NCBI GenBank assembly: GCA_016934255.1
Contig: JAFGTG010000002.1
Coordinates: 1 to 45,312 of the forward strand
DNA: 45,312 nt
Origin: Sedimentisphaerales bacterium
Lineage (GTDB): Bacteria > Planctomycetota > Phycisphaerae > Sedimentisphaerales > Anaerobacaceae
Reading direction: 5' to 3'
Every line of letters starts with the position of its first letter. The stretch's first letter is position 1. The notes beneath the pieces were generated by a model, which did not search any database, was not told where the DNA came from, and saw only the letters and a list, made by a program, of their open reading frames with translations. The position numbers were made by a program, and so were the translations under genes. Of the stretch, positions 4,750 to 21,883 are shown in pieces.

Positions 4750-4779
4750 TTGCAATTCAGATGGATGATTTGGTATAAA
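4750..4779 (+). promoter_or_regulatory. Sigma-70-type promoter of the first LamG protein gene
   Basis: TTGCAA (4750-4755), 18-base spacer, TATAAA (4774-4779). The surrounding bases (AATTC after the -35; ATTTGGTATAAATAA around the -10) recur upstream of the paralogue at 7376-7405 with the same spacing. The predicted transcript starts near 4786, leaving about 300 nt of 5' leader. The stretch 4576-4749 shows no gene. Confidence 0.6.
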
Positions 4780-4873: not shown

Positions 4874-4970
4874 AGAAGGTACGGGATGACGAACATAAGC
4901 AACAACCAACGATTCCCTATGATTTGAAGTACACAATCTCCATCTTTCTGTTGAGTGTCGGTGTCTGAAG

Positions 4971-5028
4971 AAAGGAGGTGATATCACATCGTAAAGACTC
5001 GTCTATAACCGACACGGGTGGAATGTAA
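4971..5028 (+). other. Perfect anti-SD match fused to a 16-codon leader reading frame
   Basis: AAAGGAGGTG (4971-4980) is complementary to the 3' end of 16S rRNA. Its last three bases (GTG, 4978-4980) open a 16-codon frame ending in TAA at 5026-5028, 59 bases before the downstream start codon. The same arrangement, with the same codon count, occurs at 7491-7548. Spacing is too tight for normal use of this GTG by the same SD, so it may be a ribosome standby or binding site rather than a translated peptide. Confidence 0.4.
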
Positions 5029-5087
5029 AAAAGGCAACAATGATGAATTACACGATTATCAATTTTGTTCTTTGAAGGAGGTTTGTT

Positions 5088-7208
5088 ATGTACCAGAAAG
5101 TATTATTGTCCGCTTCTTTTATTTTCGTACTGGGTCTCATGCTAACAAGTTCGGCTCATGCAGACCTTATTGGCTGGTGGATGTTTGAGGAAGGTTCAGG
5201 AAATACCGCCTATGATTCATCGGACTATGGCAACGACGGTACTCTTAACGGCGATCCGCAGTGGGTAGAAGGGTATTTTGGCGGCGGATTGGAACTGAGT
5301 AGTGATTACGTTGAGATCAACGGTATTGCCGATGACCTCACCGAAAACAATTTCGCGGTCAGTGCATGGATCAAAACCACATCAGGTGAAGGCAACGTGA
5401 TTGGAGCTAACGATACAGCCAGCGGTCACGAATTCATTTGGGGAGTTAGCTCGAGCGGTAATCACCTGGTGGAGGCGTCATCCACTGCTCGTGAGTACCC
5501 TCCCGTCATTAACGACGACGTATGGCATTTCATCGCATACGTAAGAGATGGAACCACCGCATACGTCTATACGGATGGAGAACTGGTAGGGACAGAGACA
5601 CCTGATGGAAATCCAGCCGGGCAAGCACGATGGTCGATCGGCCAGGAATACGATAGCGGTGGCCCGAGCGACTTTTACAACGGCATCGTGGATGATGTCC
5701 ACTTCTTTAATCACTCTTTATCAGCCGCGGAGATTCAGGCCGTTATGCTCGGTGAAGGATTTTCCATTGCCTCCAGTCCAAATCCGCCAGACGGATCTTT
5801 CATCGATGCTACCTGGGTGAGCATGACCTGGAGACCGGGAGATTTCGCCGTCTCACACGATGTCTATTTCGGTGAAAATGCCGACGAAGTGAGTAACGGC
5901 ACCGGCGACACATTTCGAGGCAACCAAACGACAACAGATTTCCTTGCCGGCTTCCCTGGATTTCCCTATCCGGACGGCCTGGTACCGGGAACGACGTATT
6001 ATTGGCGCATTGACGAGGTCAATGACGCGGACCCCAATAGTCCATGGAAAGGGAATGTCTGGAGTTTTAGCGTTCCTCCCAAAACAGCATATAATCCCGA
6101 TCCATCGGACGGAGCGGAGTCCATCGGTCCGGATAATGTCATTTTAAGCTGGACGCCTGGATTTGCCGCCAAGCTGCACACGGTTTTCTTTGGTGATAGC
6201 TATGATGAGGTGAACCATGCGACCACAGGTACCATGTCGGGGACCGCAACGTATAACGCCGGCTCACTCGAACCGGCCAAAGTCTATTACTGGCGCGTCG
6301 ATGAGTTTGATCCACCTTCAACGTATAAAGGGAACGTCTGGAGTTTCACGACACCAGGCGCTGTTGGTAATCCCAAACCGGCATTCAATACGACGAATGT
6401 ACCGTTGAACGTGACTCTAACGTGGACTCCGTCCGATAGCGCTGCCTCGCATGAGCTTTATTTCGGTATGGACCAAGACGCCGTGCGTAATGCCGATACC
6501 AGTGCGCCCGAATACGTCGGCTCCAAAGCGCTGGGGTCCGAGAGTCACGATCTCGGCCTGCTTGAAACGGATACGACTTACTACTGGCGTGTGGACGAAG
6601 TCGATGGTCAGAACAATACCTCGAAAGGACCCCTCTGGATTTTCACGACGGGTAGTTCTCTTCTCGTGGATGACTTCGAGAGTTATACCGATGATGATAT
6701 CGCCGGCGAAGCGATATGGCAAACATGGATCGATGGCTACGGGATCGCCGACAACGGCGCTCAGGTTGGTTATTTACTCCCCCCGTATGCCGAGCAAACA
6801 ACCGTTCATGGAGGTTCGCAGTCGATGCCGCTGATGTACCTCAACGAAGCCGGCGTTACGAATTCGGAAGCCTCGATGACGTTATCAGCACTGCGCGACT
6901 GGACTCTGGCGGGCGTTGCGGAGTTGTCACTCTGGTTCCGTGGTGCCTCGGCGAATGCGGCCGATCCGCTGTATGTAGCGCTTTCCAACAGTGCCGGCGC
7001 TCCAGCCACGGTGATCCATGATGATGCGGCCGCCGCGACGAACAGAAGGTGGACCGAATGGCGTATCCCACTGCATGCCTTTGCCGACCAGGGCATTACT
7101 CTGACGAATGTGGATAAGATTGCGATTGGCCTGGGTAGTAAGGGCGGTGCACCGGTCGGTGGTTCGGGAACGATATACATTGACGATATCTGGCTAAATC
7201 GGCCGTAA
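5088..7208 (+). CDS. Secreted LamG / Fn3-like repeat protein
   Basis: 706 residues. Signal peptide about 1-25. The LamG/concanavalin-like domain (about 27-222) starts with the typical LIGWWMFEEGSGNTAYDSS and ends with the YNGIVDDVHFFN signature. Three tandem beta-sandwich repeats of about 95 residues follow (about 227-332, 333-425, 426-522), each with an LxW core, an xxYFG strand and a TYYWRVDE strand, resembling fibronectin type III. The C-terminal jelly-roll-like domain (523-706) begins LLVDDFESYTDDD and ends YIDDIWLNRP. No catalytic motif is visible, so a carbohydrate-binding or adhesive role is inferred. The strong ribosome site GAAGGAGG precedes ATG. The last three repeats and C-terminal domain are closely shared with the next gene, whereas the N-terminal domain is different. 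Confidence 0.85.
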   Translation: MYQKVLLSASFIFVLGLMLTSSAHADLIGWWMFEEGSGNTAYDSSDYGNDGTLNGDPQWVEGYFGGGLELSSDYVEINGIADDLTENNFAVSAWIKTTSGEGNVIGANDTASGHEFIWGVSSSGNHLVEASSTAREYPPVINDDVWHFIAYVRDGTTAYVYTDGELVGTETPDGNPAGQARWSIGQEYDSGGPSDFYNGIVDDVHFFNHSLSAAEIQAVMLGEGFSIASSPNPPDGSFIDATWVSMTWRPGDFAVSHDVYFGENADEVSNGTGDTFRGNQTTTDFLAGFPGFPYPDGLVPGTTYYWRIDEVNDADPNSPWKGNVWSFSVPPKTAYNPDPSDGAESIGPDNVILSWTPGFAAKLHTVFFGDSYDEVNHATTGTMSGTATYNAGSLEPAKVYYWRVDEFDPPSTYKGNVWSFTTPGAVGNPKPAFNTTNVPLNVTLTWTPSDSAASHELYFGMDQDAVRNADTSAPEYVGSKALGSESHDLGLLETDTTYYWRVDEVDGQNNTSKGPLWIFTTGSSLLVDDFESYTDDDIAGEAIWQTWIDGYGIADNGAQVGYLLPPYAEQTTVHGGSQSMPLMYLNEAGVTNSEASMTLSALRDWTLAGVAELSLWFRGASANAADPLYVALSNSAGAPATVIHDDAAAATNRRWTEWRIPLHAFADQGITLTNVDKIAIGLGSKGGAPVGGSGTIYIDDIWLNRP

Positions 7209-7262
7209 GTTGCACGTGAACAGTTAACCTACTCTCTTGAAAACGATAGAATTGCATTTATT

Positions 7263-7297
7263 CGGGGCCTGTACCAAGGAATTAGGGATAGGTCCCG
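7263..7297 (+). terminator. Possible hairpin terminator after the first LamG protein gene
   Basis: CGGGGCCT (7263-7270) pairs with AGGTCCCG (7290-7297), 8 bp with one G-U, followed by ATTGGTTTT. The loop is long (19 nt) and the U-run broken, so this is only a moderate candidate. Confidence 0.4.
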
Positions 7298-7375
7298 ATT
7301 GGTTTTAATGCAATAAGATTGTAAAGAACAAAAGTGGGAATCAGTTAATTACGATGTCCGCACCATATTTTTTCC

Positions 7376-7405
7376 TTGAAATTCGAACGGTAAATTTGGT
7401 ATAAA
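7376..7405 (+). promoter_or_regulatory. Sigma-70-type promoter of the second secreted protein gene
   Basis: TTGAAA (7376-7381), 18-base spacer, TATAAA (7400-7405). It shares AATTC after the -35 and ATTTGGTATAAATAA with the promoter at 4750-4779. Predicted transcription start is near 7412, giving about 180 nt of leader. Confidence 0.6.
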
Positions 7406-7490
7406 TAAGAATGATCGAGTAATACCAAGAAAATTTGTATAATTCGAACAAATGGCTTTTAACTTATCATTTCTGTGTAGAGGTTTGAAG

Positions 7491-7548
7491 AAAGGAGGTG
7501 CTACCGAATCGAAAGAACTTATACCGAGCCAATGCAGTTGCAAAATAG
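7491..7548 (+). other. Second copy of the anti-SD / 16-codon leader frame
   Basis: AAAGGAGGTG (7491-7500), preceded by TTTGAAG much as in the first copy, opens a GTG frame of 16 codons ending in TAG at 7546-7548, 45 bases before the downstream ATG. The peptide would share only an Arg-Lys at codons 5-6 with the first copy (HRK versus NRK context), while its length is identical. Confidence 0.4.
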
Positions 7549-7593
7549 GGAAAGCAGAAATCATTAATTCTCTTTTTTTGAAGGAGGACGAAT

Positions 7594-9648
7594 ATGTTTA
7601 AAAAGTTGGTTTTACTAATATCTGTTGTTCTCACGCTGGCGCTGAGTGGCGGTAACACAGCCCTTGGCGGTTCAGTCGAAGCCCAATGCAGTGAGAGCTT
7701 AGAAGAGCATCTCGATACCGGAGCCTTAGATACAGGCAGTTCCGACCTGGAAATGCCCTATGAAGATGCCGGAGATTACCAATTAGTAGGTCTTCGCTTT
7801 CTGAATGTCGATGTCCCCAACCATGCGATCATAACGAGTGCCTGGGTGCAATTCACTGCGGATAATGAGAAATTGACAGGAGAACCTGTTAATCTTGCCA
7901 TCTGGGGTCGGTTGGAGCCGAATCCCGGCACCTTCACAGGCACAGGAGCTGTGTCATCGGCTCCAAAGACATCGGTTTACGCCAAGTGGAGTAATATACC
8001 CGCTTGGGCGAGCGGGGACCGCGGTCCCGACCAACAGACGTCGGACATCTCTATTGTCATCGATGAATTGGTCAATCAGGACGGCTGGGCTATGGGTAAT
8101 GCGTTGGCGCTACTCATCGGGGATGATCCAGATGCTCCTTCCAATAGTAATCGAAGCGTTGTTTCAACTGCGAACACGATTATCCTGCACGTCGAATATA
8201 CGAGCTTTTTTGCTCACAGACCCAATCCGGCGAATGGATCTATGATTAATGATACGTGGGTGAGCCTCAGTTGGCTGCCGGGACAGACGGCGGCTTCGCA
8301 CGATGTGTACTTCAGCGACAATTACAGCGACGTAAAGGATGGCACTGCGGATGTATTTCAAGGTAATCAAACCTCGACGGATTTGCTTGCCGGCTTTCCT
8401 GGATTCCCTTATCCGGAAGGTCTGATTCCGGGTACGACGTATTACTGGCGAATCGATGAAATTGAGGCCGATGGAACGACGAAACACACGGGTTCCGTCT
8501 GGCGCTTTAGTATTCCCCCCAAGACAGCTTATAACCCCGATCCGGCCGATGGGGCAGGATCTGTTGGTCCGGATGATGTAACGTTGACTTGGACGCCGGG
8601 CTTTAAAGCCAAATTGCACACGATATATCTCGGTACGGATTTTGACGTCGTTGATAATGCTTCAGGAGGAATTCCCCAGGGATTGAAAACCTATAATCCC
8701 GGCCCGCTCGAATCGGCGAGCGTTTATTACTGGCGAGTTGATGAATTTGATCCCCCGAATACGTACAAAGGGAATGTCTGGAGCTTCACAACGCCGGGCG
8801 CCGTCGGGGATCCGCAGCCAGCTTATGATGCTACGGATATCCCGATGAATGTGATTTTGAGCTGGACAGCAGCCGATAGTGCGGCGTCTCATCGGCTTTA
8901 CTTCGGAACGGACAAAGAAATGGTACGCAATGCCAATATAGGCTCGTCGGAAGACAAAGGCTCCAAAACACTCGGCGATGAGAATTACGATCCCGGATTG
9001 CTCGAACCGGAAACGACGTACTATTGGCGCGTTGACGAAGTCGATGGCCAGAGCAACGTATCGAAAGGCCCCGTCTGGATCTTCACAACGGGGACATCGC
9101 TTCTGATCGATGACTTCGAAGGTTATACGGACGACGATACCGCAGGCGAAGCTATCTGGCAAACGTGGATCGACGGTTACGGCATTGCCGATAACGGCGC
9201 ACAAGTCGGTTATTTACTACCCCCGTATGCCGAGCAAACGATCGTTCACGGTGGTTTGCAGTCGATGCCGCTCCTTTATATCAATGAAGCCGGTGTCACC
9301 AACTCCGAGGCCGTTATGTCGTTGACGTTTCCGAGGGATTGGACCCTGGCCGGGGTGGCCGAATTGTCAATTTGGTTCCGGGGTAATTCAGCGAATGCGG
9401 CCGAGCCGCTTTATGCCGCTATCTCCAATAGCAGCGGCTCTCCCGGTATAGCAGCCCATGATAATCCGAGTGCGGCTCAAATCGGCGCCTGGACAAATTG
9501 GACAATCCCATTACAAACTTTTTCCGATCAAGGGATCAACCTGACGGACGTGGATAAAATTGCGATTGGTCTCGGCAGCGAAGCAGGAGTAACCGCCGGT
9601 GGTACGGGCACGATTTATGTCGATGATATCCGGCTCTCTCAGCCGTAA
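7594..9648 (+). CDS. Secreted DNRLRE-like / Fn3-like repeat protein, paralogue of the preceding gene
   Basis: 684 residues. Signal peptide about 1-26. The N-terminal domain (about 27-205) looks like the DNRLRE / CBM96-type beta-sandwich: a QLVGLRF strand, AWVQFTAD, and a closing IILHVEYTS strand. It replaces the LamG of the upstream paralogue. From about 208 onward the same three Fn3-like repeats and the LLIDDFEGYTDDD C-terminal domain follow, with most residues identical to the paralogue. Strong ribosome site GAAGGAGG. Its own promoter and leader match those of the first gene, so the pair arose by duplication with exchange of the N-terminal module. Function is inferred to be adhesion or carbohydrate binding; no catalytic residues recognised. 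Confidence 0.85.
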   Translation: MFKKLVLLISVVLTLALSGGNTALGGSVEAQCSESLEEHLDTGALDTGSSDLEMPYEDAGDYQLVGLRFLNVDVPNHAIITSAWVQFTADNEKLTGEPVNLAIWGRLEPNPGTFTGTGAVSSAPKTSVYAKWSNIPAWASGDRGPDQQTSDISIVIDELVNQDGWAMGNALALLIGDDPDAPSNSNRSVVSTANTIILHVEYTSFFAHRPNPANGSMINDTWVSLSWLPGQTAASHDVYFSDNYSDVKDGTADVFQGNQTSTDLLAGFPGFPYPEGLIPGTTYYWRIDEIEADGTTKHTGSVWRFSIPPKTAYNPDPADGAGSVGPDDVTLTWTPGFKAKLHTIYLGTDFDVVDNASGGIPQGLKTYNPGPLESASVYYWRVDEFDPPNTYKGNVWSFTTPGAVGDPQPAYDATDIPMNVILSWTAADSAASHRLYFGTDKEMVRNANIGSSEDKGSKTLGDENYDPGLLEPETTYYWRVDEVDGQSNVSKGPVWIFTTGTSLLIDDFEGYTDDDTAGEAIWQTWIDGYGIADNGAQVGYLLPPYAEQTIVHGGLQSMPLLYINEAGVTNSEAVMSLTFPRDWTLAGVAELSIWFRGNSANAAEPLYAAISNSSGSPGIAAHDNPSAAQIGAWTNWTIPLQTFSDQGINLTDVDKIAIGLGSEAGVTAGGTGTIYVDDIRLSQP

Positions 9649-9741: not shown

Positions 9742-11001
9742 TTAATGTGCGATAACGCTGGAGATCCGGAATACCGGCAGGAGCAAGGCGATAGCAATCG
9801 TGCCAATAATGGCTCCCATGATAGTGATCATAATCGGTTCGATCAAAGTCATAACACTGCGAATCGACGCTTCGAGTTTCTTCTCGTAGAAGACCGAGAC
9901 CTTGTCACACACCTTACCCAGCTTTCCGCTTTTTTCGCCCGCCCGAAGCATCTGGATGATTCCGGGCGCAATTAAATCGCCGCCCGGGGAGATGGTGATC
10001 GATTCCGAAAGCTGGTAACCATCTCGAATCTTTGCATCCACTCCCGCCCAAAGCTCTTGAAAATAGTAGTTACGGCACGCACCCTGGATTACCTGAATCG
10101 AATCCAACAAACTAACCCCTGTATTGATCATAGTCGCCATGATGCGCATACTGCGCGTGACCACGGTGTCAATAAACATGGTCCCCACAATTGGCGTACG
10201 GATTTTGAAATAGTCGATCACCCGCCGGCCCATGACGGTTTTGGCCCAGTAATACAATCCGAATGAAATCAGAATAATCCCGGTCACGATGCCGGTCATG
10301 GCCTGCATATTACCCAACAATTTACTGAATCCGACGATGACCTGCGTTAGTTTCGGCAATGCCGCTCCCCGGGTCTCATAGATCTTCATAAAACGTGGTA
10401 ATACGAAGAACATTAAGGTCCCGGTCGCCGCCACGGCCATGAGCGCCATGATAAAAGGATAGGTCAGGGCACCCTTGATTCGTTTTCGAATATCGGATTC
10501 GAACTCAAGGTAACCGCTCAGCACATTCAGCATTTCCGCCATTTTACCGGAGGCTTCGGAGGCTTTGACCATGCTGATAAACATTTCATTGAAAGTCCTC
10601 GGATATTTATCCAGAGCATTTGAAAAATTTTCCCCCCCCTTCACTTTCTCGGCAATGTCTGCAATGATCATTTTAAATGAACCGTGCTCCGCCTGTTCTG
10701 CGATTGCGTCCATGGCGTCACTAAGCACAACGCCGCTGTCCAGCATTACCGACAATTGCGTCGTGAACAGAATCAGTTCCGCCTGCTTGACCTTCGCCTT
10801 GTATAAGCCGGGTGCGACAACATCTTCATCCTGGGACCACGTGTGATCGCCATATCGTTGTGAAGTCGGAGCGTTTTCGATACTCCGCAAAAAATCAGAG
10901 TCGTCCCGATCATGCCCCCGCCGACCTTCACTGAGTGACGAATCACTGTTTCTGGTGGCTGAATGAAATTTTTCCGAAACTTTTGATATCGGAACCGCCA
11001 T
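9742..11001 (-). CDS. gspF: Type II secretion / type IV pilus inner-membrane platform protein GspF/PilC
   Basis: 419 residues, usual family length about 400. It anchors the assembly ATPase and helps extract pseudopilins from the inner membrane (family knowledge). A non-conserved polar N-terminus (1-65) precedes two GspF domains: FTTQLSVMLDSGVVLSDAMD (about 79-98) and a second copy starting RSMRIMATMINTGVSLLDSI. Three transmembrane segments are visible (about 170-195, 220-245, 385-410). It is the last gene of the cluster, 49 bp after gspE, and ends just before the terminator at 9693-9735. Confidence 0.93.
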   Translation of the reverse strand: MAVPISKVSEKFHSATRNSDSSLSEGRRGHDRDDSDFLRSIENAPTSQRYGDHTWSQDEDVVAPGLYKAKVKQAELILFTTQLSVMLDSGVVLSDAMDAIAEQAEHGSFKMIIADIAEKVKGGENFSNALDKYPRTFNEMFISMVKASEASGKMAEMLNVLSGYLEFESDIRKRIKGALTYPFIMALMAVAATGTLMFFVLPRFMKIYETRGAALPKLTQVIVGFSKLLGNMQAMTGIVTGIILISFGLYYWAKTVMGRRVIDYFKIRTPIVGTMFIDTVVTRSMRIMATMINTGVSLLDSIQVIQGACRNYYFQELWAGVDAKIRDGYQLSESITISPGGDLIAPGIIQMLRAGEKSGKLGKVCDKVSVFYEKKLEASIRSVMTLIEPIMITIMGAIIGTIAIALLLPVFRISSVIAH

Positions 11002-11050
11002 AAACCTTCATCCCGAATGAACCTGACTGTCTTCTATAACATCACACACA

Positions 11051-12769
11051 TTAGACGATCATTTGCGCCGTTCTCAACACTTCCTCGATTGAAAGAATGC
11101 CGGCCTCTACCTTTCCAATCCCATCGGATTGCAGGGAAACCATTCCACCTTGCAGTGCCTTGGCCCGAATCTTTTTTAAGTTCGCTCCCTCATTAATCAT
11201 CTCTTTAATCTCATCATCCGGTACAAAGAGTTCGTGGATGGCAATTCTCCCGGCATATCCGGTATTGCGGCATTTCTTACATCCCACGCCCCGGTAAAAT
11301 GTCTCGACCTTGCCACCGGCCTTTTCGACGAGCTTGCGCAGACTCACCGGCGGTTCATACTCCGTTTTGCAATTCGCACAAATCTTGCGTACCAATCGTT
11401 GGGCCAGGACGGCAATCAAAGACGCCCCGACCAGATAAGGAGCCACGCCCAAATCAAGTAAACGTGTCACTGCCCCCGGGGCGTCGTTCGTATGCAGAGT
11501 CGAGAGGACCAGATGCCCCGTGAGCGCCGCCTGTACGGCGATATTGGCCGTCGCCTGGTCACGAATTTCACCCACCATTATGATATCAGGATCCTGCCTC
11601 AACAGGCTTCTCAAGGCCGTTGAAAACTCAAAACCCGCCGTCTGGTTCACCTGAAACTGATTGATGCCGGTAATATTGCACTCCACCGGATCCTCGACCG
11701 TGCAGATGTTGACTTCCTCGCTGTTCATCTCCGTCAGCGCGGCATAGAGGGTTGTATTCTTTCCCGAACCGGTCGGCCCGGTCACTAATACGATGCCGTT
11801 CGGCGCCTGGATGACCTGTCTGAATAATTGCAGATTCTCAACGGTGAATCCCAGGGACTCGAGACTATAAAGCATTTTGTGAGGATCAATCACTCGAATA
11901 ACGACTTTCTCGCCGAAATTACCCGGCATCACCGAGACGCGTAAGTCGATCGGCCGACCTTCCATGAGGACGTGAATCCCGCCGTCTTGGGGTAAACGCC
12001 GTTGTGCGATGTCAAGCTCCGACATAATCTTGATACGGGAAACCAGCGCCGAATGCATCTGATGGGGCGGACACATCTTCTCATACAATTTCCCGTCCAC
12101 ACGATAACGCACGCGAAGCTTTTTGTCATCCGGCTCGATATGGATATCACTGGCATTCTCACGCACGGCGTTATACAGCAGATAATTAACGAGCTTGACC
12201 ACCGGCGACTGGCCGGCGATCTCTTCGAGATTGCTGATGTCCTGCGTGATACTTTCGATCAACGTAAAATCTTCCAATCCCTCTTCGTCGATAATGTCGT
12301 CGATGACAAAAACATTCGCAGCGGGCAGGTACGTCTGGAGCGTTGCCTTAATATCCTTGTTCGTTGAACAGACGATCTGGACGCTACAGCCGCTGATACG
12401 CTCGATCTCATCCAGTAAAAATACATTCGTCGGCTCACTGACGGCCACGGTCAGCATGTCGTGAACCTTGAACAACGGCAGAACGACGTGCTCTTCGAGA
12501 AATTCCCTGGGGAGAATCTCCAAGACCTTCGGATCGCAGATCTTCGGGCCGACCTGCGCATACGGCACCCCGTAGGTATGGGCGAGCGCCGAGACAATCT
12601 GGTTCTCCGTACAATACCCCATCTCCACCAGAAGCTCGCCAAGAAGCTTACGATGGCCTTTGTCTTTTTGCTCGGCCAGCGCCGTTTCAATTTGCTCGGC
12701 GGTGACAATCTCCCGTTCAATCAGAAGCTCGCCAAGCGGCATTTTATTGCCTATTGCTATCCGGCTCAT
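11051..12769 (-). CDS. gspE: Assembly ATPase GspE/PilB with an atypical Walker A
   Basis: 572 residues. Cytoplasmic hexameric ATPase that drives pseudopilus or pilus assembly. The N-terminal MshEN/GspE-II-type domain (about 10-150) is followed by the catalytic core. Walker A is GPTGSGKNTT (331-340), Asp box NASDIHIEP, Walker B DPDIIMVGEIRD, His box STLHTNDA, and a zinc-binding tetracysteine CANC...CKKC near the end. Asn338 occupies the position normally Ser or Thr in GKS/T; the codon is AAT in the given sequence. The gene is 42 bp after the STAS gene and 49 bp before gspF. All other motifs are intact, so it is probably active. Confidence 0.93.
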   Translation of the reverse strand: MSRIAIGNKMPLGELLIEREIVTAEQIETALAEQKDKGHRKLLGELLVEMGYCTENQIVSALAHTYGVPYAQVGPKICDPKVLEILPREFLEEHVVLPLFKVHDMLTVAVSEPTNVFLLDEIERISGCSVQIVCSTNKDIKATLQTYLPAANVFVIDDIIDEEGLEDFTLIESITQDISNLEEIAGQSPVVKLVNYLLYNAVRENASDIHIEPDDKKLRVRYRVDGKLYEKMCPPHQMHSALVSRIKIMSELDIAQRRLPQDGGIHVLMEGRPIDLRVSVMPGNFGEKVVIRVIDPHKMLYSLESLGFTVENLQLFRQVIQAPNGIVLVTGPTGSGKNTTLYAALTEMNSEEVNICTVEDPVECNITGINQFQVNQTAGFEFSTALRSLLRQDPDIIMVGEIRDQATANIAVQAALTGHLVLSTLHTNDAPGAVTRLLDLGVAPYLVGASLIAVLAQRLVRKICANCKTEYEPPVSLRKLVEKAGGKVETFYRGVGCKKCRNTGYAGRIAIHELFVPDDEIKEMINEGANLKKIRAKALQGGMVSLQSDGIGKVEAGILSIEEVLRTAQMIV

Positions 12770-12811
12770 CTGTCGTCTTTCCGCTCAGGTGGGGTCAAGA
12801 TTCCATCGTTC

Positions 12812-13147
12812 CTACGCAAAACTCATCACGGCCTCTGCAAGCTCCATGTAATGGTCGAACTCGCTCTCAAGCCGCGTCACCTCCAGAATTTTCAAGCAGT
12901 TCTCATCGAGTCCCGCCAATCGTAACTGTTGTTTGACGTCGCCGCACTGATCGCGCGCCCATAACAACAATTCCAATCCCTGGCTGTCAATAAACCCGAT
13001 ACCACTCATATCCAGTACGATCCCGCTCTTACGTTTCGCGAGGATGTCGGTGATCGTATTCTTGAAGGCCTCACTAAAATCGCCGTCAAGCTCACCCTGC
13101 AACTCAACAACGGTGACATCGTTATATTCCTGTGTTTTGATTTTCAT
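12812..13147 (-). CDS. STAS-domain protein (anti-sigma factor antagonist type)
   Basis: 111 residues, a single STAS domain. The conserved strand-helix GIGFIDSQGLELLLWA contains the Ser (about 54) that is phosphorylated in SpoIIAA-type proteins. Partner-switch proteins of this kind bind anti-sigma kinases or regulate other proteins. No RsbW-type kinase gene is nearby. Its ATG overlaps the stop of the HD-GYP gene by four bases (ATGA), which implies translational coupling, so the HD-GYP protein is the most likely partner. Confidence 0.88.
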   Translation of the reverse strand: MKIKTQEYNDVTVVELQGELDGDFSEAFKNTITDILAKRKSGIVLDMSGIGFIDSQGLELLLWARDQCGDVKQQLRLAGLDENCLKILEVTRLESEFDHYMELAEAVMSFA

Positions 13148-14856
13148 CGGATGAGCGTCCCCACGGCAGCCGCACCATATTCCTGCGTCTTGCCGTCGCC
13201 ATAAATTTCACTGAAATCATCTCGGATAATGTTCCAGAGCTGGTCGATGTCGCTATCGAGGAAGAGACGACCGATCTTCTCATCGAACTGTGTCCCCAAC
13301 CCTTTCTCGATCTGTTCGAGGGCGATCTCCACACTCATGGCATCCCGATAGGTTCGCTTGGATGTCATGGCATCGAAGCTGTCCGCCAGGCAAACAATTC
13401 GACCGCTTAAAGGCACTTGCTCACCGGACAGACCGTTCGGATACCCCTTGCCGTCAAGGCGTTCGTGATGACATAACACACCCGGGACGATATCGCGCAT
13501 CTGTTTGATTTCACGCAGGATACTCGCCCCAATCAAGGGATGCTTTCTGACGCGTTCAAATTCCTCATCCGTCAATCCGCCTGTCTTACGTAATACGGCT
13601 TCATCGATGCCTATTTTCCCTATATCGTGCAACAAACCCGCCAAATAGATCTTGTGGATTTGTTCCTCGTCCATCGGCTCAACCTCGGCCAATCGTTCCG
13701 CAATCCACCGCGAGATAAACGCCACCCGCTCCGAATGGCCGTGCGTATATTTATCTTTGGCGTCAATGCTGCTCGTCAGGGCCTTCAGCGAACCGATAAA
13801 CAATTCTTTGAGGTCTTTGAATAATCTGCCGTTCTCAATAAATACGGCGCAACCGCCCGCGACCGAATTGAACAACTTGATATCCGTGCTATCGAAATCC
13901 TGTTTGCCGAGCCGATTGACGGCAACCATCATACCCATAATACTTTGGTTATTGTTCGTTCGGTCCGCTAAATGAGATTCCGATTTTTCCTTTCCGAAGA
14001 AAGGCACGGCAATGATATTCTTAATACGACCCGGCCATTCGTATTTAAAGTCGGAGTACGCATCGCTGTCCAACAGGGCTTCCTGACCGAGGTTGATTTC
14101 CTCCGTTAACCGACTATGGAGAATCGCGGCCATTTGCTCATCGATATCGATCAGTCCCGAGCCTGCGGAGATAACCCACCGGGGCGCGTCGTTAATCGTC
14201 TTTTCCAATAAAATGGCAATCCCCTCGACAAAAACAATTTCCGTCAAGCAATCACACGCCATCTGGAGGAAATTCGAGTCCGCCTCCGTTACTCTCATAT
14301 TGGTGCTGAGCCGGTGAAGCAGCACGAGTTCTTCATAGGTTTGCGACAGTTCGGTACTGACCTTATCGATTTGTTGTTCTGCTTTCGTCTCGGCTTTGAA
14401 TTTCGCGGCCAGAAGCTCAAGCATCTCGGCATAGTACTCAATATCCGGCGGAATCGGACCGGCAGAACTCAACGGATACGACACAATCTGCCCGCCTGCG
14501 GACGTTTCGCTCCCCAGATCAATGAGGGCTGTGCCTACGATTTCCTGGCGAGCGGCACACGGTTGTGCGGACTTTAAGACAACCGCCAGGACCGTACTCG
14601 TATCGAAAAATCGCCAGACCGATATGTCTTTTCCCTCAGCATCCGTCACCCGGTTGCATTGCTCTATCGCCTGCCGACTGCATTCGATCCATTGCTCCGC
14701 ATCGCTTTTGAAACCATCACATTCGCACTGCAAGACAATTTCATCTTCGACGTTGCAGACGGCGAAATTGACGCCGAATCGGTTGATTCGACTCCCAAAC
14801 TTTTCCAGCTCGCGGAGTTGAGATCGATTCATTTGATTTGTCAAGGTATCCAACAT
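13144..14856 (-). CDS. GAF-HD-GYP protein, probable cyclic di-GMP phosphodiesterase
   Basis: 570 residues. The N-terminal region (1-130) is unassigned. A coiled-coil-like stretch (about 140-180) and a GAF domain (about 185-345) follow. The HD-GYP domain (about 355-535) has an intact HD pair (LLHDIGK, 409-415) and HHERLDGKGYP (463-473). HD-GYP proteins hydrolyse c-di-GMP (family knowledge). No transmembrane segment, so cytoplasmic. It is 17 bp after the receiver gene and overlaps the STAS gene. Placement inside a pseudopilus operon suggests control of assembly by c-di-GMP, an inference. Confidence 0.9.
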   Translation of the reverse strand: MLDTLTNQMNRSQLRELEKFGSRINRFGVNFAVCNVEDEIVLQCECDGFKSDAEQWIECSRQAIEQCNRVTDAEGKDISVWRFFDTSTVLAVVLKSAQPCAARQEIVGTALIDLGSETSAGGQIVSYPLSSAGPIPPDIEYYAEMLELLAAKFKAETKAEQQIDKVSTELSQTYEELVLLHRLSTNMRVTEADSNFLQMACDCLTEIVFVEGIAILLEKTINDAPRWVISAGSGLIDIDEQMAAILHSRLTEEINLGQEALLDSDAYSDFKYEWPGRIKNIIAVPFFGKEKSESHLADRTNNNQSIMGMMVAVNRLGKQDFDSTDIKLFNSVAGGCAVFIENGRLFKDLKELFIGSLKALTSSIDAKDKYTHGHSERVAFISRWIAERLAEVEPMDEEQIHKIYLAGLLHDIGKIGIDEAVLRKTGGLTDEEFERVRKHPLIGASILREIKQMRDIVPGVLCHHERLDGKGYPNGLSGEQVPLSGRIVCLADSFDAMTSKRTYRDAMSVEIALEQIEKGLGTQFDEKIGRLFLDSDIDQLWNIIRDDFSEIYGDGKTQEYGAAAVGTLIR

Positions 14857-14873
14857 AATGTCTCACGGATTAT

Positions 14874-15284
14874 TCAACTATGTGCCTGTTTCGACTGTTC
14901 ACCGACTAATTCTTTTTGATACAGAATGTCCTCGATGTGGCCCAATAATTCCTTCGGGCTGAACGGCTTGCTCAAACATCCCGATATGCGCAATTCCTCC
15001 TGCTGTTCCTGTGGAACGGCAAAGCTTCTGGCCGTCAGCATAATCACGGGAATGTCTTTTGTTTCGTCGTTCTGTCGAAGTTTCTCGATCAGTTCCATGC
15101 CCGACATAATCGGCATCTGGAAATCCGTCACAATAATATCCGGCTTGTCCTTCAGCGCCAGATCGTATGCCTCGGCCCCATTGTCGGCCGAGATGACTTC
15201 GTAACCGTTATTACGAAGCTTGATCGCCACCACATGAACGATATGAATCTCGTCGTCCACCACCAACACTCTTTTGTCCGCCAT
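14874..15284 (-). CDS. Single-domain response regulator (CheY-like)
   Basis: 136 residues, receiver domain only. Acidic pocket VVDDE (9-13), phospho-acceptor Asp54 in IVTDFQMP, Thr in MLTARS, and Lys in CLSKPFSP. No output domain, so it must act by protein contact, perhaps on the HD-GYP protein encoded 17 bp downstream. The kinase partner is probably the histidine kinase 74 bp upstream. Ribosome site GGAGGA six bases before ATG. Confidence 0.9.
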   Translation of the reverse strand: MADKRVLVVDDEIHIVHVVAIKLRNNGYEVISADNGAEAYDLALKDKPDIIVTDFQMPIMSGMELIEKLRQNDETKDIPVIMLTARSFAVPQEQQEELRISGCLSKPFSPKELLGHIEDILYQKELVGEQSKQAHS

Positions 15285-15358
15285 TGTTTATCCTCCAGTA
15301 GAATCTAATATGTCGGGGCTAAAAAGATACACCCGACGCTCATATTGCTAAGCTTTCC

Positions 15359-16918
15359 TTATACGACCCCCACCGATCGTCGCGTCGCCAAAGGCAACTC
15401 AAAACCAAAGGTGCTGCCCACGCCGACCTGGCTGGTCACGAACACCTTTCCGTCGTGGATCTTTTCAACGATCTGTTTTACAAGGTTGAGACCCAGCCCC
15501 GTTCCCTTGGCCTGTTTGTTGTTGGCGCCCACGCGATAAAACTTGTCAAAGACATGCTCGATTTCATCCGCGGGGATACCAACGCCCGTATCCGTGACCG
15601 TGACTCTCGCCAACGAAGCACTTTCATCAACCATGGTTTCCACACGCACCGATCCTCCGGCCGGTGTGTATTTCACCGCGTTACTGAGCAAATTCACGAT
15701 CACCTGGGACATCATGTCTTTATCCACATACACCTGGTCGAAGACAATCGGCTTTTGTCCGGAGACCTCGATGTTCTTTTCCTCCGCAAAACCTTTGATC
15801 ATTTGCATTTGTTCTTCAATCAGCAGTGTCAGACTCATCGGCTCTTTTTGCACTTTAATTAAGCCCGATTCGATACGCGACGTATTTAAAATATCTTCGA
15901 TTAAACGACTCAGCCTGTTAGCCTGATTTTGGATGACCGAATAAAATTCCCTTCTCGTGCGTTCATCATTGGCTTCCCCATCGGCCAGCATTTCGGAATA
16001 GGCCGTGATGGACGCCAGCGGCGTTTTCAATTCGTGCGAGACATGACTGACAAAGTCCGTTTTCATTTGCTGAATCTGCTTTTCACGCGTAATGTCATGC
16101 ATCACGGCGACGACGCCGGTCACCTTCTGGTTCCGGTCGTAAACACATGAGACGATACAATCATACGTTTTACGCTCGTCCTGTTCCTGAAATTCGATCT
16201 CTCGCCGAGTCGCCTGTCCCTTGCTCTTTCTGCTGTGACTGAGAAATTCCGAGAATTCACTTCGGTCCGCACTAATGAGTTCTTCAATTGGTTTACGTTG
16301 TGATTCCTTAAAATCAAAACTGAAAAGACGACCGGCTGCTTCGTTGGCGATTAACAGCCTGTCGTACTCGTCGGTCACAATCACCGCGTCTCGAATGCTA
16401 TAGATGATCGCTTCGATGTTCCTGCCCCGATTATGGGCGAGTTGCAACTGAAGCTGCAATTCCTTAATCTGCTTTTCATACTCGCCAATGCGCCCGGCGT
16501 ACTGATCGTAATGCTCAGAGATCGTTCGGCAAAGCGCATTGATTTGATGGATTCTGAGCGGTGAGAAAAAGCTCTCTTTTACAGAATTTTTCGCTTTTTC
16601 ATCGTTCCGAATAAATCGGGCTATGGACGCGATCGCCCTGGCCAGCTTAAGCCAGTGCCAGCCGAGCGGTATCGCGGCCATAGCCATCAGTATGCAGCAC
16701 CCCAGTAAGACCGGGCCGTGCTGCATGACAGCGACAACAGGTCCACCTTCATCGACGCCGTAGTTATGACCTTCGACGACAGGCCCAACAAACAACCACC
16801 ATGCGCCGACGCATAGAACCGTAATGTAAAAGTTTCTTTCGCGTTTCAAAACTATACCCTGAGGAATTAGATATCGTTTTTTGACTATCGCTTCAGACTC
16901 CCAACGGCCTCCTCTCAA
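15359..16918 (-). CDS. Membrane sensor histidine kinase with PAS domain
   Basis: 519 residues. Two transmembrane segments (about 30-46 and 68-90), a coiled coil (about 140-160), PAS domain (about 165-280), HisKA with phospho-acceptor His295 in SHVSHELKTPL, and HATPase with an N box (NLLSNAVKYTP), DTGVGIP, and GTGLGLNLV. No large periplasmic sensor; the short loop (about 47-67) may sense. The start is uncertain: the only upstream in-frame start is TTG at 16918, with no ribosome site before it, while AGAGGAGG lies just inside the reading frame. A TTG at residue 24 follows an AGGG. It is 32 bp after the secretin gene. Confidence 0.9.
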   Translation of the reverse strand: MRGGRWESEAIVKKRYLIPQGIVLKRERNFYITVLCVGAWWLFVGPVVEGHNYGVDEGGPVVAVMQHGPVLLGCCILMAMAAIPLGWHWLKLARAIASIARFIRNDEKAKNSVKESFFSPLRIHQINALCRTISEHYDQYAGRIGEYEKQIKELQLQLQLAHNRGRNIEAIIYSIRDAVIVTDEYDRLLIANEAAGRLFSFDFKESQRKPIEELISADRSEFSEFLSHSRKSKGQATRREIEFQEQDERKTYDCIVSCVYDRNQKVTGVVAVMHDITREKQIQQMKTDFVSHVSHELKTPLASITAYSEMLADGEANDERTRREFYSVIQNQANRLSRLIEDILNTSRIESGLIKVQKEPMSLTLLIEEQMQMIKGFAEEKNIEVSGQKPIVFDQVYVDKDMMSQVIVNLLSNAVKYTPAGGSVRVETMVDESASLARVTVTDTGVGIPADEIEHVFDKFYRVGANNKQAKGTGLGLNLVKQIVEKIHDGKVFVTSQVGVGSTFGFELPLATRRSVGVV

Positions 16919-16945
16919 TAGTCAATATTTTCTTGTCAATACTCA
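16915..16945. repeat. TCAATAGTC-type short repeats between secretin and kinase genes
   Basis: TCAATAGTCAATATT and GTCAATACTC follow each other over 16915-16945. The unit (GACTATTGA on the minus strand) also occurs twice around the palindrome at 24567-24606. Confidence 0.35.
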
Positions 16946-16950
16946 CTTGC

Positions 16951-18645
16951 TTACCTTCTGAGCCAACTCGGCGCCTCCTGGTGATCCCTTTTCTCAGACA
17001 TTTTTCGTTCCAGCCTCTTCAAGGCTTCATGGCCGTCCCTTTCGGCGATGATTCGCTCTTTGAGCCGAATCGCCTCGAGATAAGACGGGCGCAGCTCAAT
17101 CGCATATTCCACTTCCGTCATGGCATCTTCTAATTGACCGGACTCATAGTACACGATGGCCGTCGTATAATGTTCCTCGGCCAATCGGGCCCGACTGATC
17201 TGCTGCAATTCATCTTTGGCGCCAAATCGCTTTCGCTTAATATCATCTTTCCTGGCTTCACCGTCCGTTTCATTCGGCTCATTGATGATATGCGGGGTCA
17301 GCAGGATAATCACTTCCTCACGTTTGACCTGGTCGTTGACGCCCCTGAAGACGCCGCCCACGATCGGCAAATCACCCAGGATCGGAATCTGCGTCTTATT
17401 GGACGTGATCGTATCCCGGAACAAGCCGCCGATAACAACCGTCTCACCGTCCTTGACGATGATATTACTCAGCAATTCCGCGGAGGTTTCGTCCGGGATG
17501 TTGTTTTCCTTTAAATTACCCGAACTATCCTTCGGATGGATATCCATTCGGATGTATCCATCGTTGCCGATGTACGCTCTGAACGACAACTTCGTACCGG
17601 TATCGAGAAACTCGACCTGGGACGTTAATTGCGTATCCATCGATACGGTCGTCTGAGATTCATAGCCGACCTTGGTGCCGATATAAACCTGGCCAAGCTG
17701 CTTGTTGACGGCCAAAATCTTGGGATTCGCCAAGATCGTTACATCGCTAACGCTCTCAATCGCCTTGATAATGCTGGCGATGTTATCATGGGCAAAACCA
17801 ATCGCGAAGCCCCCACTTTTTGTGACGACTTGCGAGAGATTCGTCGACGTTATAAAATCTTTCGTTTTGCTTCCAATAAACGTTTGACCGGCGGTATTTG
17901 CATTTCCGAGCAGAAGCTGCCAGTCCACACCGAATTGCGTATCTTCGGTCAGCGTCGCGCTCAGAATGGTCGCCTCAATCAAAACCTGCAGAGGCCGGAT
18001 ATCAATATCTCCCAGCATTTCGCCTACCATCTCGATATTTTCAGGATAGTCGAACACAACGATCGTATCGTTCATCGCCGTCGCGTCCCCGCCGCCGCTG
18101 GCCGAACTGATCGACTCGCCGGTCGGAAAGTCCGTGATCGCCGCGGTGGTGGTTTCGATCGCACCGGTACCGCTGAGCACCGGCGTCAAAAGCTTCTTCG
18201 CCTCGGCCGCGGAAATATAATACAGAGTGAAGATTTTAAAAATCCGCCGCTCCGGCGCTTCCATCAATTTTTTGTATTCTTCCTTGGTGTACACTTTAAT
18301 GAGATTGCCCTGCACCTCATACATCGCGTTGTCACCCAGAATCGCTTCCATGGCCTCTTCGAATGTGACATTCGTCAGACGCCGGAACGCCAGAGAACCA
18401 TTGACACTCGCCGAAGGCACAATGTTCTTCTGGCATTGACTGCCCAGCATCGCCAACGCTTTGCGTACATCAAAATCTTCTTCCACCTCAAACTTCTCAA
18501 TAATATTGGGCCCGTTGCTTTGAGCAACATCTCTATCTCCGGCGTCGGCAACGGCGGTTGTCGTCGCCAAGATCAGGATAGAGCTCCACACGAGCACGCC
18601 CCATGGGATTTTCAGATTGTATTGTAATCTTTTATTACGACACAT
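16951..18645 (-). CDS. gspD: Secretin (GspD/PilQ family) with C-terminal TPR-like tail
   Basis: 564 residues. Outer-membrane channel of the machine. Signal peptide about 1-34. One short N-terminal domain of the STN/N0 type (about 50-120), one N1-type domain (about 133-215) interrupted by a Gly/Ser/Thr-rich loop, then the secretin core (about 220-455) with the signature TQIPILGDLPIVGGVFR and the closing ILLTPHII. After it come about 110 charged residues including one or two TPR-like helical pairs (about 485-535). It has fewer N-domains than classical GspD. Ribosome site AGAGGAG before ATG. It lies 43 bp after the PilP/GspC-like gene. Confidence 0.9.
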   Translation of the reverse strand: MCRNKRLQYNLKIPWGVLVWSSILILATTTAVADAGDRDVAQSNGPNIIEKFEVEEDFDVRKALAMLGSQCQKNIVPSASVNGSLAFRRLTNVTFEEAMEAILGDNAMYEVQGNLIKVYTKEEYKKLMEAPERRIFKIFTLYYISAAEAKKLLTPVLSGTGAIETTTAAITDFPTGESISSASGGGDATAMNDTIVVFDYPENIEMVGEMLGDIDIRPLQVLIEATILSATLTEDTQFGVDWQLLLGNANTAGQTFIGSKTKDFITSTNLSQVVTKSGGFAIGFAHDNIASIIKAIESVSDVTILANPKILAVNKQLGQVYIGTKVGYESQTTVSMDTQLTSQVEFLDTGTKLSFRAYIGNDGYIRMDIHPKDSSGNLKENNIPDETSAELLSNIIVKDGETVVIGGLFRDTITSNKTQIPILGDLPIVGGVFRGVNDQVKREEVIILLTPHIINEPNETDGEARKDDIKRKRFGAKDELQQISRARLAEEHYTTAIVYYESGQLEDAMTEVEYAIELRPSYLEAIRLKERIIAERDGHEALKRLERKMSEKRDHQEAPSWLRR

Positions 18646-18688
18646 ATTTGGACTCCTCTTCTATCGTTTTATCTTAAGTACTCACTCA

Positions 18689-19294
18689 TCAATTGTTTGT
18701 CGTTGATTCCTTTTCAAGTTTCAAAATGATCTCCGCTTCCTTGCACTTCATTACTACCGTATTTTCTTTAATCAACACTACTTCACATTCAAACTTATCC
18801 GCACCTTCCCCAATAATCATTTTACTCCCCACCCAGATCACGTTACCGTTCAGACACGCCTGGGGATTTTCACTCACCATCACGGCTTCAAGTTTCAGCT
18901 TCTCGGTCAATTTTTTGATCACTTCTTCACTAACATCTTGTGAAAAATTATTTACTTCTTCAAAACCATTGCGTTGACGTTGTCTATCTAAAAAATGACG
19001 CCAATTCTCTGAAGCAAAGACATCTCGGGTGATGACGTCATGCCGTCCGGCGACCTTGGGTAACTCTATAAACGTTATTTTTAATTCCAGATTCGACGGT
19101 TCGCTCGTACTCGACGGCTCGGCGATGATTTCCGCCCCGGCGGCTTCCGGCGATTTCTTCGTCAGCACTCGCATCCACATGAAGGCCATCACGCCCATTA
19201 AACAGAGAGCCATCACGACCTTTTTCTTCTCAGCCGCCAATTGACCGACCAGGCCTTTCGCCCGGTGACCGTTATGTCTGACGTTGCGTCTCAT
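18689..19294 (-). CDS. Bitopic inner-membrane protein, PilP/GspC-like by position
   Basis: 201 residues. A basic cytoplasmic N-terminus (1-25) is followed by one transmembrane segment (VVMALCLMGVMAFMWMRVL, about 26-44) and a periplasmic part. The last 70 residues (ACLNGNVIWVGSKMIIGEGADKF onward) resemble the small beta domain of GspC/PilP 'HR' proteins that bridge the inner-membrane platform and the secretin. Position between pilO and the secretin gene is that of pilP in type IV pilus operons. Sequence similarity to either family is weak by eye, so the name rests mostly on context. Confidence 0.6.
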   Translation of the reverse strand: MRRNVRHNGHRAKGLVGQLAAEKKKVVMALCLMGVMAFMWMRVLTKKSPEAAGAEIIAEPSSTSEPSNLELKITFIELPKVAGRHDVITRDVFASENWRHFLDRQRQRNGFEEVNNFSQDVSEEVIKKLTEKLKLEAVMVSENPQACLNGNVIWVGSKMIIGEGADKFECEVVLIKENTVVMKCKEAEIILKLEKESTTNN

Positions 19295-19310
19295 TCAGCC
19301 TTCTGCTTTC

Positions 19311-19847
19311 TTACCCTTGCGCCCTATAATAGATAACCGCCTTTGTTTCCATACTGATCTGTCCGCCGTAACCGGCGTCATTCATGAGCTTGACCTGCTC
19401 GATGCGGACAAGTCGGTCCAGGTCCTGCAAACGATCATAAAAATTAAATAGCTGAGTTAGCCGGCCTTTGCATTGCATACTCACCGGTATGCAGTGAAAC
19501 CTATCGGCAGCCAACACCTCCCCCGGCTCGATGCTCTGTTCCTGGAGATGGTGCTCATTCATCAGTTCCGTAATCCTGCTCAAAAAGGAGCCAAAATCCC
19601 TTTGATCCGGTATCTTGGATTCATAGTTTTCAAGCTCGACCTGCAATTTTTGTAACTGCTCCTTCAGAACGGGCACCTGCTCGGCATCCGCCATCCCCTT
19701 GGCAATCGTGACGACCTGCTCGGCCTTCGTCAGTTTGACAAGCCTCATTTTTTTACGAAGAGGCAAATACCAAAAGATGACGAATACGCATATAATCGCC
19801 CCGGCTACGCCGAATATCACTATTTGTTGACTTCTCCCGTACAACAT
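19311..19847 (-). CDS. pilO: PilO-like pilus/pseudopilus platform protein
   Basis: 178 residues. A single N-terminal transmembrane segment (about 9-28), then a coiled coil (about 45-80, EQLQKLQVELENYESKIP) and a ferredoxin-like C-terminal domain with the PVSMQCKGRLTQLFNFYDRL strand-helix typical of PilO. PilO pairs with PilN in the periplasm (family knowledge). 16 bp upstream of the PilP/GspC-like gene and 17 bp downstream of pilN. Confidence 0.8.
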   Translation of the reverse strand: MLYGRSQQIVIFGVAGAIICVFVIFWYLPLRKKMRLVKLTKAEQVVTIAKGMADAEQVPVLKEQLQKLQVELENYESKIPDQRDFGSFLSRITELMNEHHLQEQSIEPGEVLAADRFHCIPVSMQCKGRLTQLFNFYDRLQDLDRLVRIEQVKLMNDAGYGGQISMETKAVIYYRAQG

Positions 19848-19864
19848 TTTGTATTATTCACCTT

Positions 19865-20608
19865 TCAAAGCTCTCGATAATTGCCTAAATAACAATTAAT
19901 CTGAAACTCACTGACTTGAAGTTTCACTGCGGCCCCAGCACGCCCCTCCGTATCGCCCGCAAGAACATCCACATCGCGAAGGAATGGTGTGTTACGACTC
20001 CCAACCTGACCGTTGCGTGAAAAAGACAACACGACATGGCGAAAATACGGGGACGTTTCCAAACGACTCACCAATTCCGCCATATAGCTGGCATCCGCCG
20101 CTACGCCGGCGATCAAAACCTTAAATCGCACGTCCCCAAGCGGTACGTTCTTCTTACCTAACTGAGCCGGTGCGACCCTCACGACGGTACTCGGACGCCC
20201 CGATCCGTCCCCACCGCCTTTTCCGGGTTTTTCCGCAATGAATTCGATTTTGTTCAGAACAACCATTTCGTCCACCAACGAACTTATTTCCGCTAAAACG
20301 CTTGCCACATCAATTTTGGAATCAATTTCCTCAACGGATTGAATTTTTTCCTGTAACGTCTTCAATTCAGTCTTAATCCCCGTCAATTCCAAAGAGGCCT
20401 TTTCCGCCTGGTCACACTGAGTCGTCATTTGAGCTAATCCGGCTTTGGCGTTTGAAATCGAGCGGCTGGTGGCCAAACTCCAGACGATCATCACCAGAAG
20501 TACACCGCCTAACACGATGCACTGCATGCGATAATTCACCTGGCGTCTTCGCCCGGTCTTATACCAATCTGGAAGAAAATCAATTTCTTTCATACTCTCA
20601 TGACCCAC
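19865..20608 (-). CDS. pilN: PilN-like fimbrial assembly protein
   Basis: 247 residues. The N-terminal EIDFLPDWYKTGRRRQ is the cytoplasmic motif that docks in PilM (compare INLLP in PilN proteins). One transmembrane segment (about 28-45), coiled coil (about 50-95), then a ferredoxin-like periplasmic domain. A Gly-rich insert GKGGGDGSGRPS lies within the domain. Its start overlaps the end of pilM by 11 bp. Confidence 0.82.
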   Translation of the reverse strand: MGHESMKEIDFLPDWYKTGRRRQVNYRMQCIVLGGVLLVMIVWSLATSRSISNAKAGLAQMTTQCDQAEKASLELTGIKTELKTLQEKIQSVEEIDSKIDVASVLAEISSLVDEMVVLNKIEFIAEKPGKGGGDGSGRPSTVVRVAPAQLGKKNVPLGDVRFKVLIAGVAADASYMAELVSRLETSPYFRHVVLSFSRNGQVGSRNTPFLRDVDVLAGDTEGRAGAAVKLQVSEFQINCYLGNYREL

Positions 20609-21776: not shown

Positions 21777-21883
21777 TGCCTTCTCTTTCTCATTGACTCA
21801 CTTTACATCGCGACCCGATAAAACGTTTTCTTCTCTCTGAAAAAACGTTGAAAAATCCATCTTGTCCGGATTCATCTTTAATT

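What the first reader, a model, noticed from the sequence alone, without database searches (positions are those of the whole stretch)
4971..7548. Two 16-codon leader frames starting on perfect anti-SD sequences
Both secreted-protein genes have GAAG AAAGGAGGTG about 100 nt before their true start. The GTG of the match opens a frame of exactly 16 codons in each (ends 5028 and 7548), although the bases in between differ. Equal length with divergent sequence may mean a translated leader peptide, a ribosome standby site, or a spacing rule. A related GGAGGAGGGTGATG small frame precedes gspH (22434-22474).
Basis: seen in the sequence. Interest (0 to 1): 0.6.

Follow-up and report, generated by a model that had tools for sequence, protein, structure and literature searches.

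The report
Start-less ribosome-binding tract in mRNA leaders
Many secreted-protein genes in one family of uncultured planctomycete bacteria carry, about 100 bases before the real gene start, an unusually strong ribosome-binding sequence that has no start codon after it, so it probably anchors a ribosomal subunit on the messenger RNA instead of starting a peptide.

Summary
The two tracts are real (GAAGAAAGGAGGTG at 4967-4980 and 7487-7500), and both GTG frames are 16 codons. The equal length is coincidence and the leader-peptide reading fails: the GTG lies inside the SD duplex, is present in only 49 of 107 non-redundant relatives, and its frames run from 4 to 386 codons. The tract itself is a recurrent element. 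I collected 117 copies from this genome and its GTDB family. It lies a median 129 nt before ATGs of secreted-type genes, in sense, each with its own normal SD. A TTGACG/GGTATAAATA promoter lies upstream of 61 of 117, so the tract is in the transcribed leader. It pairs with the 16S 3' tail far better than the genes' own SDs (mean -19.6 versus -11.1 kcal/mol; 103 of 103), yet start codons are depleted where one should follow (ATG 0 of 107, about 14 in control windows). Best reading: a start-less extended SD that tethers 30S subunits on the leader, working like the cry3A STAB-SD mRNA stabiliser. RNase J, which cry3A needs, was not found in 18 genomes tested; RNase E/G was in all 18. No Rfam match, no consistent fold. 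Function is inferred, not shown.

The parts
4967..4980 (+). copy 1 of the start-less extended SD tract GAAGAAAGGAGGTG; AGAAAGGAGGTGAT pairs with 14 nt of the 16S 3' tail of relative G101
   Evidence: model R1 match 4964-5007 E 5.6e-7, model R2 match 4958-5012 E 1.1e-8
7487..7500 (+). copy 2 of the tract; AGAAAGGAGGTG pairs with 12 nt of the 16S tail
   Evidence: R1 match 7483-7528 E 1.5e-6, R2 match 7480-7532 E 3.3e-7
4978..5028 (+). 16-codon GTG frame of copy 1; judged not translated from this tract (the GTG is part of the SD duplex)
7498..7548 (+). 16-codon GTG frame of copy 2; judged not translated from this tract
4750..4779 (+). likely promoter of gene 1: TTGCAA (4750-4755), 18 nt, TATAAA (4774-4779) in TTTGGTATAAATA; the tract would be about 180 nt into the transcript
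   Evidence: sequence; family-wide promoter consensus. The generic sigma-70 scan did not list it
7376..7405 (+). likely promoter of gene 2: TTGAAA (7376-7381), 18 nt, TATAAA (7400-7405) in TTTGGTATAAATA; the tract would be about 75 nt into the transcript
   Evidence: sequence. Not listed by the generic scan
5075..5081 (+). real SD (AAGGAGG) of gene 1
5088..7208 (+). gene 1: 706-aa secreted-type protein with LamG-like (Laminin_G_3) domain
7581..7587 (+). real SD (AAGGAGG) of gene 2
7594..9648 (+). gene 2: 684-aa secreted-type protein, no Pfam domain over its cut-off

Best explanation
The tract is a recurrent 5'-leader RNA element: an extended, almost full-length complement of the 16S rRNA 3' tail that is not followed by a start codon. 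Transcripts start at a sigma-70-type promoter 55-294 nt upstream of it. A 30S subunit (or ribosome) docks on the tract through 11-13 base pairs, cannot start because no start codon is in reach, and so sits on the leader 94-354 nt (median 129) before the true ATG. The most likely use is to shield the 5' region of these secreted-protein mRNAs from decay, and possibly to keep ribosomes near, working like the STAB-SD 5' stabiliser of Bacillus cry3A. Shown here: conservation, position, promoter, complementarity, lack of a start codon, restriction to one family. Inferred: 30S binding, mRNA stabilisation, and protection from RNase E/G in place of RNase J.
For: 117 copies collected from this genome and family relatives. 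Positions 2-12 and 14 can pair with the 16S tail in 92-100% of 107 non-redundant copies, and the frequent variation there is A/G opposite U (positions 4 and 14); register 0 pairs 0.947 of cells against 0.54-0.73 in slid registers (16S tail read from relative G101). Duplex energy mean -19.6 versus -11.1 kcal/mol for the genes' own SD, stronger in 103 of 103. Start codons 4-12 nt after GGAGG: ATG 0 of 107 (control mean 14), ATG/GTG/TTG 10 of 107 (control mean 48, range 40-63). Promoter in 61 of 117 (shuffles 2.75, reverse complement 2). Same-strand secreted-type ORF with SD within 230 nt in 87 of 104, opposite direction 0 of 104. Precedent: cry3A STAB-SD (passages of PMC4113751).
Against: RNase J, the nuclease blocked at STAB-SD, was not found: 0 of 18 genomes over the TIGR00649 cut-off, RNase E/G in 18 of 18. 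A passage of PMC3997798 says that in E. coli a stably bound 5' ribosome does not protect downstream lacZ mRNA from RNase E. The tract is slightly less accessible in predicted folds than with shuffled flanks (0.32 versus 0.36, p 0.01). The conserved CAAATC...ATCC stretch after the tract is more than 30S docking alone needs. Position 13 pairs with 16S in only half of the copies. The copies were found through the tract, so its invariance is partly ascertainment. There are no expression data.
Confidence: 0.5

Rival explanations
1. Ribosome standby or loading site: the tract holds 30S subunits near the gene so that they can slide to a hard-to-reach RBS, as at about 100 nt in E. coli tisB.
For: Distance (median 129 nt) resembles the ~100 nt of tisB (PMC7708055 abstract and passages); strong 16S complementarity.
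Against: The real RBS is not predicted to be more structured than the linker (unpaired 0.40 and 0.40) and the tract is not more open than with shuffled flanks; the tisB site works through S1 and structure rather than an SD.
Confidence: 0.2
2. Binding site of a regulatory protein such as CsrA (AAGGAGG fits the ANGGA core, which I recall), bridging the tract and the true SD to regulate a secreted-protein regulon.
For: CsrA is encoded in this genome and in 75 of 89 family genomes; conserved bases extend beyond the SD core.
Against: Carriers and non-carriers alike have CsrA, so its presence does not discriminate. The first GGA of GAAGGAAGGAGG is lost in about 40% of copies. A protein site has no reason to match 11-13 nt of the 16S tail.
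Confidence: 0.13
3. Some other trans-acting factor (small RNA, unknown RNA- or DNA-binding protein) recognises the whole approximately 50-nt element; the SD likeness is incidental.
For: CAAATC and the ATTRTCCTGGGCAGA segment are conserved though not needed for 16S pairing; weak local hairpin signals (z 3.3 upstream, 2.5 downstream).
Against: Pairing register and G-U-compatible variation; variable promoter distance argues against a promoter-linked DNA site.
Confidence: 0.12
4. Translated leader peptide starting at the GTG or at a non-canonical codon.
For: Two copies in the window share a 16-codon frame; extended SDs do drive AUU and AUA starts in S. aureus (passages of PMC13009471).
Against: GTG only in 49 of 107, lengths 4-386 codons, no frame open throughout (21, 33 and 9 of 107), start codons depleted at usable spacing; AT[CTA] at spacing 9 in 45 of 107 with lengths 1-273 and no frame longer than the others.
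Confidence: 0.03

Closest known systems
STAB-SD 5' mRNA stabiliser of Bacillus thuringiensis cry3A (Agaisse and Lereclus 1996, cited in PMC4113751; passages of the review read, original paper not read)
   Same: An SD-like sequence in the 5' leader, about 130 nt before the gene, able to pair with 16S, not used to start translation, with the primary promoter far upstream.
   Different: Here it is a multi-copy family before secreted-protein genes of planctomycetes, longer, with about 30 further conserved bases; RNase J, which trims cry3A mRNA up to the site, was not found.
Ribosome standby site of E. coli tisB (PMC7708055; abstract and passages)
   Same: 30S landing site about 100 nt upstream of the RBS.
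   Different: tisB uses a single-stranded region plus a 5' structure and protein S1, with a sequestered RBS; here an SD-type tract and no sign of a sequestered RBS.
Polypurine stabiliser of mycobacterial katG (PMC2358910; abstract and passages)
   Same: Polypurine tract with 16S complementarity that raises mRNA stability.
   Different: It lies 4 nt before the start codon, and stability also needs translation of at least 20 codons.

Membership tests
STAB-SD 5' mRNA stabiliser | SD-like sequence in the 5' leader complementary to the 16S 3' end | tested here: met
STAB-SD 5' mRNA stabiliser | does not direct translation initiation | tested here: met
   start-codon depletion and no conserved frame; by sequence only
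STAB-SD 5' mRNA stabiliser | blocks 5'-3' exonuclease RNase J1 | tested here: not met
   RNase J model TIGR00649 over cut-off in 0 of 18 genomes; several are incomplete MAGs
STAB-SD 5' mRNA stabiliser | mature mRNA 5' end just upstream of the tract; longer half-life | not testable with these tools
   no RNA data
Ribosome standby site | accessible single-stranded landing site | tested here: not met
   unpaired 0.32 versus 0.36 with shuffled flanks, 89 leaders; prediction only
Ribosome standby site | downstream RBS sequestered in structure | tested here: inconclusive
   RBS 0.40, linker 0.40 unpaired
Leader peptide (uORF) | start codon at usable distance from the SD | tested here: not met
   10 of 107 versus about 48 in control windows
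Leader peptide (uORF) | conserved frame or length | tested here: not met
CsrA-controlled leader | csrA present in carriers and GGA motif in leader | tested here: inconclusive
   csrA in own genome and 75 of 89, carriers and non-carriers alike; motif recalled
Known Rfam RNA family | covariance-model match over the leader | tested here: not met
   no leader match in 40 of the loci at E <= 1

The most novel reading that the evidence does not exclude
A dedicated 'ribosome anchor': a multi-copy, start-less, near full-length anti-16S element that marks the mRNAs of a secreted-protein regulon in one planctomycete family and controls their decay or ribosome supply without RNase J, that is, a 30S-based leader code working in an RNase E bacterium.
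Probability: 0.35. Interest if true: 0.72.

Novelty: new variant of a known kind. Interest (0 to 1): 0.55.

Why it matters
Start-less SDs that stabilise mRNA are known from a few Bacillus genes, where RNase J explains them. A conserved family of up to about 30 copies per genome, tied to secreted proteins, in bacteria that seem to lack RNase J would show that cells use the ribosomal subunit as a leader-binding factor on a regulon scale. It would also give uncultured planctomycetes a recognisable expression signal.

Tried and rejected
Leader peptide from GTG, from any start 4-12 nt on, or from AT[CTA]: rejected. Conserved RNA fold: RNAalifold gave 0 pairs on 17 copies and 3 on 115; pair-covariation scans showed no helix; local hairpins upstream and downstream of the tract gave only weak signals (z 3.3 and 2.5); the two window leaders fold no better than shuffles. 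A fourU-like hairpin (T-run pairing with GGAGGT) pairs 0.75 of cells at the right register, but all five inner pairs form in only 39 of 107, so it is not claimed. Rfam: no leader match. CsrA co-occurrence: not discriminating.

Rows dropped. Of 21 hits with up to 1 mismatch in the own genome I kept 17. L021 (coding), L012 and L013 (another sequence) were left out, and L006 too, an exact tract with a weak model match (E 0.076) although a secreted-type ORF lies about 115 nt on. From the list I fetched 100 of the hits outside the own genome, strongest first in the main, not all. 115 of 117 copies were usable for alignment and 107 remained after an 80% identity cut. ORF choice favours ATG, SD and signal-like starts; the unbiased contrast is the two-direction count. 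The signal-peptide test is a simple hydrophobicity rule, not a trained predictor.

Full report
What is in the window. GAAGAAAGGAGGTG occurs at 4967-4980 and 7487-7500. The GTG at its end opens 16-codon frames that stop at 5028 and 7548. The genes downstream start at ATG 5088 and ATG 7594 with their own SDs; both have signal-like N-termini, the first has a LamG-like domain and the second no Pfam domain over its cut-off. The window is contig C549 of a 6.3-Mb, 634-contig genome.

Recurrence in the own genome. The 14-mer is found 9 times exactly and 21 times with up to 1 mismatch, against 2 for the reversed pattern. Seventeen of the 21 share further bases and lie 94-141 nt (from the first base of the tract) before a gene with an ATG and a signal-like start. 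A sequence-only model of 16 of them (R1) finds 18 copies at E <= 0.01 in this genome.

Distribution. R1 finds the element in 26 of 89 family genomes at E <= 0.01, but in only 4 of 298 genomes sampled across the class at E <= 0.001. The second model, R2 (53 copies), finds it in 28 of 161 order genomes at E <= 0.001. All 28 listed are of the own family, with up to 30 copies in one genome. A pattern scan of named genomes gave 43 stretches where about 4 are expected by chance. Forty are labelled as planctomycetes, mostly Phycisphaerae, Phycisphaerales or Sedimentisphaerales MAGs; 3 carry other labels (Zixibacteria, Deltaproteobacteria, Archaeoglobales) and were not examined.

Anatomy. On 117 copies the consensus is GGGCTTTTGAAGRAAGGAGGTRGYGTCAAATCRYAAAGAATTRTCCTGGGCAGA (written from the column table and the alignments; the last third is the least fixed). 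AAGGAGG is 99-100% conserved, T12 91%, and C18, A19, T22 and C23 79-88%. Upstream, 61 of 117 loci have a TTGAC / GGTATAAATA promoter 55-294 nt before the tract, against 2.75 in shuffles and 2 on the reverse complement. So the tract is inside the leader, at a variable distance from the promoter. Downstream, a secreted-type ORF with SD lies within 230 nt on the same strand in 87 of 104, and on the opposite side in 0 of 104.

Pairing with 16S. No 16S was found in the own genome. Relative G101, a carrier with 10-15 copies, has one ending GGATCACCTCCTTTCT. Positions 2-14 of the tract pair with it in 94.7% of cells, other registers 54-73%. Positions opposite U vary between A and G (position 4: 59 G, 47 A; position 14: 83 G, 20 A), positions opposite C stay G, and only position 13 is free. 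Duplex energy averages -19.6 kcal/mol, against -11.1 for the same genes' own SD, stronger in 103 of 103.

No start. ATG within 4-12 nt of GGAGG: 0 of 107 (control windows in the same leaders, mean 14). Any of ATG, GTG or TTG: 10 of 107 (mean 48, range 40-63). The depletion follows from the conserved bases there, so it is one fact with the consensus, not a second independent one. Non-canonical AT[CTA] at spacing 9 occurs in 45 of 107 without a conserved length. In S. aureus extended SDs do serve AUU and AUA starts (passages of PMC13009471), which is why I tested this.

No clear fold. See Tried and rejected; predicted accessibility of the tract is not raised (0.32 versus 0.36) and the true RBS is not notably structured. 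The leader is best described as a linear sequence element.

Mechanism. The features are those of an SD that docks 30S subunits but cannot start. The nearest tested precedent is the cry3A STAB-SD, where a bound 30S stops RNase J1 (passages of PMC4113751). RNase J was over the cut-off in 0 of 18 family genomes that I tested, while RNase E/G was found in all 18. A review passage states that in E. coli a stably bound 5' ribosome does not protect lacZ from RNase E (PMC3997798). So the stabiliser reading needs a different nuclease, or the anchor serves ribosome supply. I give the 30S-anchor reading 0.5, standby 0.2, and a protein or other trans factor 0.25 together.

Novelty. Literature searches (listings) showed no description of this element in planctomycetes; most subscription papers are not held, so this is not proof of absence. 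I rate it a new variant of a known kind.

Noticed in passing
L153 leader about 90 nt after the tract; also L142, L158, L167, L192, L194 and others: An optional hairpin, gctttGGTGTGTGGCCaaagc, lies between tract and SD in at least 23 of 107 leaders, with a conserved loop and changes on both sides of several stem pairs (T-A to C-G, A-T). The search required 3 pairs, so the counts lean to pairing.
   Followed up: partly
downstream genes of 100 copies: Proteins with different domains (LamG, PA14, CBM9 and none known) share an N-terminus close to MCKKLIYLVSFV, as if promoter, leader and signal peptide spread as one module.
   Followed up: partly
window 22430-22474, minus strand: A 9-10 codon frame after GGAGGAGG ends 4 nt before the gspH ATG, an ordinary-looking uORF unrelated to the element.
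   Followed up: partly
window 9742-22429, minus strand: A type II secretion / type IV pilus cluster (T2SSF, T2SSE, secretin, PilN, PilM, GspH) next to the two secreted-protein genes; they might be its substrates.
   Followed up: no
L012 and L013 (contig C159): Two copies of another shared sequence around GGAGAAAGGAGGTGTGTGAGGGTAATGAAAAACTGATGAG, not of the element.
   Followed up: no
L222, L235, L241: Exact pattern hits in contigs labelled Zixibacteria, Deltaproteobacteria and Archaeoglobales: chance, misbinning or transfer.
   Followed up: no
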